From an uncultured Burkholderiales bacterium (GTDB taxonomy: Bacteria; Pseudomonadota; Gammaproteobacteria; Burkholderiales; Burkholderiaceae_C): a stretch of DNA of 54,628 nucleotides. Where the stretch lies: positions 1 to 54,628 of the forward strand of contig CAIRBP010000021.1 of assembly GCA_903876885.1 (NCBI GenBank). The letters run 5' to 3'. Numbering within the stretch: the stretch's first letter is position 1; the number at the start of each line of letters is the position of its first letter. Below the pieces are notes generated by a model, which ran no database searches, was not told the DNA's origin, and was given only the letters and a program-made list of their open reading frames with translations. Shown here one piece after another: positions 1-2,932 of this stretch. The position numbers and the translations under genes are program-made.

Positions 1-1439
1 ACAGTTGCGCTAGATAGACCCGCTATTTGAGGCGTCGTCAGCACCGATATATCTGTCGTGCTTAAATTCGCCACTTGGTTACTTGTCAGCGCGTTAAGCT
101 GAACCGTTGTAAGCGCAGCAACCTGCGCTGTTGTTAGTGCGGCTACACCAGTTGTAGCTAACGCTAATATTGCAGCTGGATTTAAGGCTTGAATGTCCGC
201 AGTACTCAGCGCTTGAATTTGATCACCGGATAAAGAGGAAATAGTTGCTGTAGTTAAATTGGCCACTTGAGCCGAAGTTAAAGAAAGCACCTGCGTAGTA
301 GAAAGAGTAGCAACTTGACTGGTGTTCAAAGCTTGCAAAGCATTTGTATTTAAATTCGGAATTTCAGAAGTCGTAAGCGCTGCAACTTGATCAGTAGTTA
401 AAGCTGAAATCTCAGTTGAAGTTAAGGCAGCTATTTGCTGCGTTGTTAAGGTTGAGATTTGACTTGTCGATAAAGAGTTAATACCAAGTGAGACGAGAGA
501 TACGATTTGCGAGGTATTTAAAGCGTTAATCTGCGTCGTTGTAAAACTAAGCAATTGCCCTTGTGAAAGGGACTGTATTTGAGCACTGTTTAGAGCCGTA
601 ATCTGAGAAGTGGTGAGTGTTACGAGCGCCCCCGTACTTAAACCCGCAACCTGAACCGTCGTTAATCCTCCTACTTGCGTACTGGTTAATGACTGCAATT
701 GTGTAGAAGATAGTGCAAAGAGTTGAGTCGTAGTTAGCGCATCTAAGCTAACGCTTGATAAAGCCTGTAGCTGAAGAGTGGATAACTGTGATACCGAAGT
801 TGTTGACAGGGCCTGTAAGTCCGAAGTCGTTAGTGCTTGGATTTGCACTGATGCCAATGCCGAGACCTGGGCAGTAGTGATACTAACGCTTTGGGCAGTT
901 GAGACGACATTAATTTGCTGGGTACTGAGCCCAATAACCGCTTGGGTTGAGAGAGCTTGAAATTGTGCTGTTGATAAAGCTTGAATGGCTTGAGTCGTTA
1001 TACCGCCCACTTGTTGTGAGCTCAATACGCTTACCTGAGTAGTTGTCAAAGCCCCAATTTGCGATAGTTTAAAAGAAGATAACTGAGAAGAACTTAGAGT
1101 TGCAACTTGTACTGTTGAGAGTACGCTAATTCCTGATGTACTTAGAGCAGCTACTTGGAGATTGCTGAGAGCGGCAATTTGAGAGGTTGATAAAACTGAA
1201 ATGCTAGTTGTATTTAATGATGCAACTTGAGTTGTACTAAAAGACTGCACCTGGGGAACAGAAAATGCAACAACTTGCGTACTAAGCAATTTACTGATCT
1301 GATAGCTAGTTAAAGCACTCACCAAAGTTGTAGACAACGTTCGTACCTGATCCGTACTAATGCCTTGAACCTGACTTTCAGTCAGAATCGCCATCTGTGT
1401 CGAGGACAGGTTTGTTAAAAATGCAGCGTTAATAGACAT
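1..1439 (-). CDS. Octapeptide-repeat protein, N-terminal part (runs off the window)
   Basis: The frame is open from an ATG at 1439 to the window edge (479 codons plus 2 bases). After about 10 residues the protein is 58 complete tandem octads plus a partial one, in a single register with no insertion or deletion. The consensus is L-[S/T]-[T/S]-x-Q-[V/I/L]-x-[A/S]. Position 1 is Leu in 50 of 58 units, position 5 is Gln in 40, and position 6 is hydrophobic in 57. The repeats hold only about 13 charged residues, no Cys, Trp or His, and one Tyr. There is no N-terminal signal peptide. I do not recognise the family. Low charge, great length and Ser/Thr/Gln richness suggest a secreted or surface fibrous protein, perhaps exported by a type I-like route, but that is inference. 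An in-frame stop at 1467-1469 limits the start. No clear ribosome binding site precedes the ATG; a TTG at 1457 is an alternative. Confidence 0.85.
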   Translation of the reverse strand, partial: MSINAAFLTNLSSTQMAILTESQVQGISTDQVRTLSTTLVSALTSYQISKLLSTQVVAFSVPQVQSFSTTQVASLNTTSISVLSTSQIAALSNLQVAALSTSGISVLSTVQVATLSSSQLSSFKLSQIGALTTTQVSVLSSQQVGGITTQAIQALSTAQFQALSTQAVIGLSTQQINVVSTAQSVSITTAQVSALASVQIQALTTSDLQALSTTSVSQLSTLQLQALSSVSLDALTTTQLFALSSTQLQSLTSTQVGGLTTVQVAGLSTGALVTLTTSQITALNSAQIQSLSQGQLLSFTTTQINALNTSQIVSLVSLGINSLSTSQISTLTTQQIAALTSTEISALTTDQVAALTTSEIPNLNTNALQALNTSQVATLSTTQVLSLTSAQVANLTTATISSLSGDQIQALSTADIQALNPAAILALATTGVAALTTAQVAALTTVQLNALTSNQVANLSTTDISVLTTPQIAGLSSAT

Positions 1440-2353: not shown

Positions 2354-2932
2354 ATGGATTCAATCTCAGACCTTGAACTAACACAAATATCAGTTCCGCT
2401 ACAACTACCTGTATTTTGCTGCGACTTAAATCCACATGTACGTGAACTCACTTTGGCCAAAGAAGCGGTGGAAGAACTCCGTATTTCACACCCCGAGTCT
2501 ATTGAATCCAATGTAAAAGCAACCTATTCAAGCTCCTACAAAAGTCATCTTCTAAATTCAAAATTAGTCCCCCTAACCGAACTTGTGATGAAGATTGCAA
2601 AAAAAGCTTCTAAACAAACACTAAGTTGTGATCTCGATGCGATTAACGTCGATTTATTTACTGCAGACTGTTGGTGTGCAATTTATGAAAAAACGGATGA
2701 GACCATTCCGCACAACCACTTTCCTTCTGATTTTTCTGCAGTAGTCTATTTAGAGGCAGGGCCACTCAGTGCACCGATTATTTTTGCGAACTCAATTCTA
2801 GTTAATCCTGTTCCGGGAACTTTGGTCTTATTTCCAGGAATCTTAAACCATCACGTACCGCCCACCGAGGGTAGGCGCGTCGTAGTTGCAATGAATCTAT
2901 TCAAAGTCCCGCGTTTTACCGACGCAAGTTAA
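2354..2932 (+). CDS. Putative 2-oxoglutarate/Fe(II)-dependent oxygenase
   Basis: The protein is 192 residues long. The C-terminal half has the double-stranded beta-helix signature of the putative 2OG-Fe(II) oxygenases: an HNHFPSD segment (His120, His122, Asp126) before a beta strand reading SAVVYLEAG, then FPGILNHHVPP with His166/His167, then an Arg-rich strand (Arg174, Arg175) that would hold the 2-oxoglutarate carboxylate. Iron ligands are inferred from these positions. The N-terminal 90 residues are less conserved and could set substrate choice. Substrate unknown; related proteins are often phage- or host-encoded hydroxylases of unknown target. The stop codon abuts the uvrD stop, so the two genes converge with no spacer and no room for a separate terminator. 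Confidence 0.7.
   Translation: MDSISDLELTQISVPLQLPVFCCDLNPHVRELTLAKEAVEELRISHPESIESNVKATYSSSYKSHLLNSKLVPLTELVMKIAKKASKQTLSCDLDAINVDLFTADCWCAIYEKTDETIPHNHFPSDFSAVVYLEAGPLSAPIIFANSILVNPVPGTLVLFPGILNHHVPPTEGRRVVVAMNLFKVPRFTDAS

What the first reader, a model, noticed from the sequence alone, without database searches (positions are those of the whole stretch)
1..1439. Giant-type protein of at least 58 in-register octapeptide repeats
Read directly: L-[S/T]-[T/S]-x-Q-[V/I/L]-x-[A/S] repeats from residue 11 to the window edge with no insertion or deletion. The repeats have almost no charge, no Cys/Trp/His, and only three basic residues. The S/T-x-x-Q pattern after Leu looks like a helix N-cap box, so each octad may be a one- to two-turn helix stacked into a tight solenoid; a beta-solenoid is the alternative. 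I cannot assign it to a named repeat family. Its total length, C-terminal domain and export route lie outside the window.
Basis: partly seen in the sequence, partly recalled or inferred. Interest (0 to 1): 0.75.

Follow-up and report, generated by a model that had tools for sequence, protein, structure and literature searches.

The report
Fragment of a giant octapeptide-repeat protein
A Burkholderiales-type bacterium carries the start of a giant protein built from one eight-residue unit repeated dozens of times; it belongs to a named but unexplained repeat family that is probably exported to the cell surface as a long screw of tiny helices.

Summary
In detail: window 1439..1 (- strand) encodes 479 codons, 58 in-register octads from residue 11, open to the contig edge. 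It is not unassigned: Pfam names it ALTTAQ_rpt (PF20080, E 1.4e-79). The nearest solved sequence is a chain named "HeliScrew4" (9zem); the nearest fold is mesothelin-like, but weakly. The gene looks intact: a relative keeps 59% identity over all 479 residues without an indel. Two C-terminal pieces in the same genome, and 77 of 120 listed homologues, end in a homologue of the FrpC self-processing module, but the Asp of its cleaved Asp-Pro bond is Thr/Ser in 161 of 161 copies. Relatives run to several thousand residues, show no clear Sec signal, and often sit beside a type I exporter (21 of 72 loci) or a GT41 glycosyltransferase (17 of 72); in its own genus several lie near flagellin genes. Best reading: the N-terminal part of a type-I-secreted, possibly glycosylated, helical-screw surface stalk. 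The window protein's own C-terminus, exporter and function remain unproven.

The parts
1..1439 (-). ORF, 479 codons, start ATG at 1439, 3' end cut by the contig edge; ALTTAQ octapeptide-repeat protein, N-terminal part
   Evidence: orthologues in G074, G026 and G018 start with the same MSIN- N-terminus
1410..1439 (-). 10-residue leader before the first octad; no clear Sec-like hydrophobic stretch
   Evidence: highest 10-residue Kyte-Doolittle mean in the first 35 residues 1.37; a crude test
18..1409 (-). 58 complete octads (residues 11-474), consensus L-[ST]-[TS]-x-Q-[IVL]-x-[AS]; predicted about one 5-6-residue helix each
2354..2932 (+). divergent neighbour, 2OG-Fe(II) oxygenase-like gene (PF13759), a marker of the same locus in three relatives (in the window a 166-codon ORF at 1824-2324 lies between); not shown to act with the repeat protein

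Best explanation
This is the N-terminal part of a giant ALTTAQ-repeat (PF20080) surface protein. SHOWN by sequence: octad repeats, open frame, family membership, conserved orthologues. PREDICTED by model: each octad is one short alpha-helix, stacked into a long screw-like solenoid. INFERRED from relatives: the protein ends in a self-processing-module-like domain followed by a C-terminal tail; it is exported without a Sec signal by a HlyB/HlyD-type type I system, C-terminus first; the C-terminal domain folds outside the cell (with calcium in most relatives); the nearly uncharged Ser/Thr-rich screw then extends as a stalk, probably glycosylated by a GT41 enzyme in many species, and serves in attachment or surface coating.
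For: Family. Helix per octad: (pLDDT 90.1, pTM 0.78); nearest solved sequence 9zem 'HeliScrew4' E 5e-13. Constrained: G074 orthologue 59% identical, no indel over 479 aa, dN 0.32 with dS not computable (saturated); Leu1 and Gln5 most conserved (0.83 each). C-terminal domain: own fragments C112 (3e-33) and C87 (9e-25) match FrpC SPM 6sjw/6sjx. Export: ABC within 1 kb downstream, same strand, in 21 of 72 usable loci; control: 2 of the 72 have one more than 5 kb away, in 315 kb. For two examples, the ABC's best NCBIfam model is HlyB-type TIGR01846, below its cut-off; one HlyD passes TIGR01843. Glycosylation: GT41 within 1 kb in 17 of 72, control 5. In the genus, 4 genomes have the strong ABC homologue next to an ALTTAQ gene, with HlyD and a GT41 gene beyond it; 3 of these 4 carry the orthologue of the window gene.
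Against: No dedicated type I exporter was found in this genome: best ABC 261 bits (the assembly is 68% complete). None of the four own fragments has ABC, HlyD or GT41 in the stretch fetched around it. Which C-terminal fragment belongs to the window gene is unproven: no contig-end overlap. 34 of 72 named loci have neither neighbour. In G018 the ALTTAQ gene directly before the exporter lacks a recognisable SPM-like end. The calcium loops are decayed in the own C-terminal copies. GT41 also holds N-glycosyltransferases, so the linkage is open (abstract start). Adhesion and glycosylation are untested.
Confidence: 0.58

Rival explanations
1. It is a flagellum-associated protein: an accessory of the filament, or a substrate of the flagellar export apparatus, made in flagellin glycosylation islands.
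For: In the genus, 6 of the 9 ALTTAQ places that I chose to fetch have a flagellin gene in the same stretch (L035, L036, L038, L039, L041, L044), and so has G074 C140 (L164). Among 80 named loci, 5 have flgK and 2 have flagellin (one of them also fliD) nearby. Four of the flagellin-linked genus proteins (L035, L036, L038, L041) end in repeats, without the SPM-like domain.
Against: The window gene is not next to flagellar genes; the neighbour it shares with three relatives is a 2OG-oxygenase gene. Both own C-terminal fragments carry the SPM-like domain. 73 of 80 named loci show no such flagellar gene at the sensitivity.
Confidence: 0.15
2. A giant with another C-terminus, for example the calpain-like protease domain (PF00648) that 19 of the 120 listed homologues carry, so that it acts as a secreted enzyme on a repeat stalk.
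For: Precomputed Pfam domains: 19 of 120 PF00648, 77 of 120 PF26745.
Against: The own genome's two C-terminal pieces both carry the SPM-like domain and the number of N-terminal pieces (2) equals the number of C-terminal ones (2); no pairing was proven.
Confidence: 0.1
3. A beta-solenoid or an LRR-type protein.
For: Pfam LRR_EndoS scored 29.1 bits, over its cut-off of 27.9; weak hits to Toll-like and lamprey receptors.
Against: The period is 8, not the 20-30 usual for LRRs (recalled); the AF2 model has no strands; ALTTAQ scores 261.9 bits. I take the LRR hits to come from spaced leucines (inference).
Confidence: 0.04
4. Assembly artefact or pseudogene.
For: All four own fragments stop at contig edges.
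Against: No internal stop in 479 codons; orthologue in G074 without indel; dN 0.32 with saturated dS; PF20080 matches in 22 of 37 genus genomes, own included, and in 0 of 24 genomes of other families. Repeats readily break assemblies (inference).
Confidence: 0.03

Closest known systems
Pfam PF20080 ALTTAQ_rpt
   Same: Same octad, far over the cut-off, 18 separate stretches
   Different: A name without a described function that I could find: no paper in the held library contains ALTTAQ or PF20080
PDB 9zem 'HeliScrew4' (120 aa)
   Same: Eight-residue units such as LTPEQIAA align with the window at E 5e-13
   Different: Richer in charge and Pro; known to me only as a PDB sequence and name. No paper found; structure not seen, and it is not among the 50 listed rows
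FrpC self-processing module (SPM), PDB 6sjw/6sjx
   Same: C-terminal domain of the relatives, median 46% identity over 160 distinct copies; Trp451, Gly477, Gly491, Asp579 and the calcium loops mostly kept
   Different: Scissile Asp is Thr/Ser in 161 of 161, Asp478 kept in 2 of 160, no RTX repeats (a single GGxGxD in 3 of 208). The published SPM is described as exclusive to a subset of RTX proteins (PMC7078468, passages seen)
Giant type-I-secreted adhesins such as SiiE (PMC6272769, listing and start of abstract seen)
   Same: Giant, repetitive; in many relatives a HlyB/HlyD-type exporter gene nearby
   Different: Stalk of octads in place of Ig-like domains; SPM-like C-terminus in relatives; GT41 neighbour in some
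Mesothelin (7ued and others)
   Same: Right-handed solenoid of 24 short helices (PMC10035497, passages seen); Foldseek rank 1, probability 1.00, E 3.3e-4; 2.7 A over 71 residues for 7u9j

Membership tests
Pfam PF20080 ALTTAQ repeat | Profile score over the curated cut-off | tested here: met
   261.9 bits against 26.4; 18 stretches
Pfam PF20080 ALTTAQ repeat | Octads in tandem, one register | tested here: met
   58 octads, no indel
FrpC-type self-processing module (clip-and-link) | Homologous domain in the window protein itself | not testable with these tools
   The window stops inside the repeats; own fragments C112 and C87 have the domain, pairing unproven
FrpC-type self-processing module (clip-and-link) | Scissile Asp-Pro bond | tested here: not met
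   Residue before the Pro is Thr 114, Ser 47, Asp 0 of 161 copies, own fragments included
FrpC-type self-processing module (clip-and-link) | Asp478 and Asp579 of the transient calcium site | tested here: not met
   478 is Asp in 2 of 160; 579 is Asp in 156 of 160, gap in 4
FrpC-type self-processing module (clip-and-link) | EF-hand-like calcium loops | tested here: inconclusive
   Kept in most copies (D462 154, D499 156, D521 160, E532 153 of 160); decayed in own C112 and C87
RTX proteins | GGxGxDxxx nonapeptides | tested here: not met
   GGxGxD occurs, once each, in 3 of 208 relatives; not in the window piece
Type I secretion substrate | No Sec signal peptide | tested here: met
   Window: repeats start at residue 11, highest 10-residue hydropathy mean 1.37, by a crude test. 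Of 38 relatives listed there many start M-x-S-I/L-V-x-S and go straight into repeats; the earliest start codon was taken, so some rows include upstream codons (highest value 2.28, L102)
Type I secretion substrate | Cognate HlyB/HlyD genes | tested here: inconclusive
   Own genome none found (68% complete); strong ABC homologue in 4 of 61 genus genomes; ABC within 1 kb in 21 of 72 named loci
Type I secretion substrate | C-terminal secretion signal | not testable with these tools
   The C-terminus of the window protein is not in the assembly
ARM/HEAT or mesothelin-like alpha-solenoid | Same fold by structure comparison | tested here: inconclusive
Leucine-rich repeat | Parallel beta-strand in each repeat | tested here: not met
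   No strand in the AF2 model, although LRR_EndoS passes its cut-off by 1.2 bits

The most novel reading that the evidence does not exclude
The SPM-like domain at the end of these screws is not dead but re-tooled: a hydroxyl residue (Thr or Ser) stands before the Pro in every one of 161 copies. It could support a different calcium-triggered self-processing or acyl-transfer reaction, so that each giant helical screw is cut from its C-terminal export piece, or anchored covalently, after secretion.
Probability: 0.1. Interest if true: 0.85.

Novelty: new variant of a known kind. Interest (0 to 1): 0.5.

Why it matters
ALTTAQ repeats are common (717 homologues in one capped search), and the few that bear a source's name are called 'heme utilization protein', 'trimeric autotransporter adhesin', 'beta strand repeat-containing' or hypothetical. 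Joining them to a helical octad screw, a type I exporter, a GT41 glycosyltransferase and an altered self-processing module gives a testable function to a family for which I found none described. An eight-residue unit that makes a single helix would be among the simplest alpha-solenoids (my judgement), useful as a design scaffold. The Thr/Ser-Pro form asks whether clip-and-link chemistry was lost or changed.

Tried and rejected
LRR and Toll-like similarity: rejected, no strands in the model and the wrong period. NCBIfam: no match for the window protein or for P0094. Overlap of contig ends to pair the own fragments: none, longest shared run 10 nt. Idea that octads evolve in threes: a 24-residue gap separates G026 and G018 from G000 and G074, but over 64 proteins multiples of three octads are not enriched (positive in 14 of 64; best lag a multiple of three in 11 of 64): rejected. 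Alignment A1 of overlapping window segments collapsed onto itself and was not used. Dedicated exporter in the own genome: not found; the best ABC (C65) scores 254 against a cut-off of 510 and lies beside genes that look to me like cyanophycin synthetases (recalled, not searched). tRNA in the window: none. 9zem does not appear among the listed rows of the fold searches; that library ends in April 2026, so this says nothing. Of 80 named loci 8 were dropped before the neighbour counts: 3 with under 5 strict octads (L081, L085, L124), the rest with under 1.5 kb downstream. The named loci were ranked by likeness to one alignment that includes the C-terminal domain (so the share with that domain, 77 of 80, is by choice), are mostly Burkholderiales and are not independent; the overlap statistic (p 4e-4 for 3 shared genomes) ignores kinship. 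Paper searches on the octad fold and on GT41 with type I secretion gave nothing on these proteins in the rows listed; one review of alpha-solenoids was searched by word only.

Full report
OBSERVATION. The first 1439 bases of the window, read on the - strand, are an open frame of 479 codons from an ATG at 1439 to the window edge. The window edge is the edge of contig C21. From residue 11 there are 58 complete octads without an indel. Leu occupies one phase of eight 51 times, against at most 19 in 2000 shuffles; of the lags tested, identity is high only at multiples of 8. Codons for the conserved Leu and Gln are mixed and DNA identity between octads averages 0.44, so the pattern is kept at the protein level.

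IDENTITY. Pfam names the repeat: PF20080 ALTTAQ_rpt, E 1.4e-79. NCBIfam has no model that matches. A protein search found 717 homologues among the 7999 candidates scored; of the best 120 listed, 77 carry PF26745 and 19 carry the calpain-like PF00648 besides the repeat. The held paper library has no paper with ALTTAQ, PF20080 or HeliScrew. The aconitase of the window is 93% identical to an unnamed protein and 89-91% to those listed with names such as Curvibacter, Hylemonella and Acidovorax, so the host is probably a Burkholderiales bacterium near these; window GC 45%.

STRUCTURE. AlphaFold2 on the window protein with 33 homologues gives mean pLDDT 90.1 and pTM 0.78, with a short helix (mostly 5-6 residues) in nearly every octad; residues 11-310 are at 92-98 by blocks of ten, the first ten at 84, the last third at 60-89. 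The closest solved sequence is the 120-residue 9zem 'HeliScrew4'. By structure the nearest chains are mesothelin, a spiral of short helices, and ARM proteins; all Z are below 8, so this is likeness and not membership.

IS IT INTACT? Three genus relatives (G074, G026, G018) have the same gene beside the same 2OG-oxygenase gene; in the window a 166-codon ORF lies between the two. G074 is 59% identical over 479 residues with no indel and stays open for 779 codons to its own contig edge; G026 and G018 lack the same 24 residues. dN is 0.32 while dS could not be computed (saturated); Leu1 and Gln5 are the most conserved octad positions (0.83 each) and position 4 the least (0.36). The gene is therefore constrained; no frameshift was seen in the part held.

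THE REST OF THE PROTEIN. The own genome (2.2 Mb, 68% complete) holds ALTTAQ sequence at four contig edges: two N-terminal pieces (C21, the window; C99) and two C-terminal pieces (C112, 1290 codons; C87, 510 codons). No overlap pairs them. Both C-terminal pieces end in a domain homologous to the self-processing module of FrpC (3e-33 and 9e-25). That module, in published work, cuts an Asp-Pro bond after binding calcium and links the new end to a lysine (PMC7078468, passages seen). In 161 of 208 sequences examined the module start could be found, and the residue before the Pro is Thr (114) or Ser (47), never Asp. Asp478 is kept in 2 of 160 distinct copies, Asp579 in 156 of 160. The calcium loops are kept in most copies but decayed in the two own ones and in those of G026, G018 and G074, while the G061 copy keeps them. 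The 77 of 120 listed homologues in which the module start was found (43 named as without it) are the same 77 that carry PF26745, so PF26745 is very probably this domain.

NEIGHBOURS IN RELATIVES. 80 named loci were fetched with an alignment that includes the C-terminal domain as bait. Of 72 usable, 21 have an ABC exporter gene of the kind with a C39-peptidase-like N-terminus within 1 kb downstream on the same strand, 17 a GT41 gene (TPR plus Glyco_transf_41) within 1 kb, 38 either (ABC within 1 kb or GT41 within 5 kb), 34 neither. In 315 kb of the same loci more than 5 kb away, 2 loci have such an ABC and 5 such a GT41; about 0.5 and 1.1 would be expected in the 1-kb stretches at that density. 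For two exporters scanned, the best NCBIfam model is HlyB-type TIGR01846, below its cut-off (652.5 and 639.4 against 725.55); the one adaptor scanned passes TIGR01843. In the genus this exporter (over 1000 bits) is found in 4 of 61 genomes, G018, G026, G061 and G074, each time next to an ALTTAQ gene and followed by HlyD; a GT41 gene comes next, on the same strand in G018, G026 and G074 and on the opposite strand in G061. The adjoining ALTTAQ gene has the altered SPM-like end in 3 of the 4; in G018 it has none that I could recognise, while the ALTTAQ gene before it has. 3 of these 4 genomes also carry the orthologue of the window gene. In G000 none of these neighbours was found in the stretches held around the fragments.

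FLAGELLAR LINK. In 6 of 9 genus places that I chose and fetched a flagellin gene lies in the same stretch, as in G074 C140; five named loci (L095, L109, L115, L117, L121) have flgK close by and two (L064, L066) flagellin. Four flagellin-linked genus proteins (L035, L036, L038, L041) end in repeats, without the SPM-like domain. GT41 genes are in several of these stretches too (L035, L038, L039, L041). They may be a second class with another export route.

MECHANISM. Steps shown: repeat, family, open frame, orthologues. Steps predicted: one helix per octad. Steps inferred from relatives: type I export, C-terminal folding module, glycosylation, surface stalk or adhesin. The last is the weakest, as no binding domain was seen.

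VERDICT. The window piece is a new member of PF20080; the whole architecture, seen through relatives, is a new variant of the giant type-I-secreted surface protein.

Noticed in passing
L039/L040 (G022:C29:5022-24046): An ALTTAQ open frame of 6361 codons, running to the contig end, with matches repeated every 144 bases in part of it, preceded by a GT41-like gene and a flagellin gene cut at the contig start.
   Followed up: partly
L035:11165-13720 and L038:11762-14368: Metallopeptidase-like genes (matrixin/reprolysin, PF00413/PF13688) beside flagellin-linked ALTTAQ genes.
   Followed up: no
L034 (G000:C99:368-1918): The other N-terminal ALTTAQ fragment of this genome lies downstream of a TraG/TraD-like coupling-protein gene, so possibly on a mobile element.
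   Followed up: no
L037 against L058: Two genes that look like metG and apbC (by eye) are neighbours in both genomes; in G032 an ALTTAQ gene lies next to the second, in G000 an exporter-type ABC gene does: presence/absence variation.
   Followed up: no
L161 (G000:C34:60000-79000): Three GT41-type glycosyltransferase genes within about 12 kb in the own genome (one scanned, all), with other ORFs between them that look TPR-like by eye; no ALTTAQ gene in that stretch.
   Followed up: partly
L035:689-4708, L060:390-3881: Long flagellins (1339 and 1163 codons) in this genus.
   Followed up: no
L163:3959-7186 (G018 C95): The ALTTAQ gene directly before the type I exporter in G018 has no recognisable SPM-like end, while the ALTTAQ gene before it has.
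   Followed up: partly
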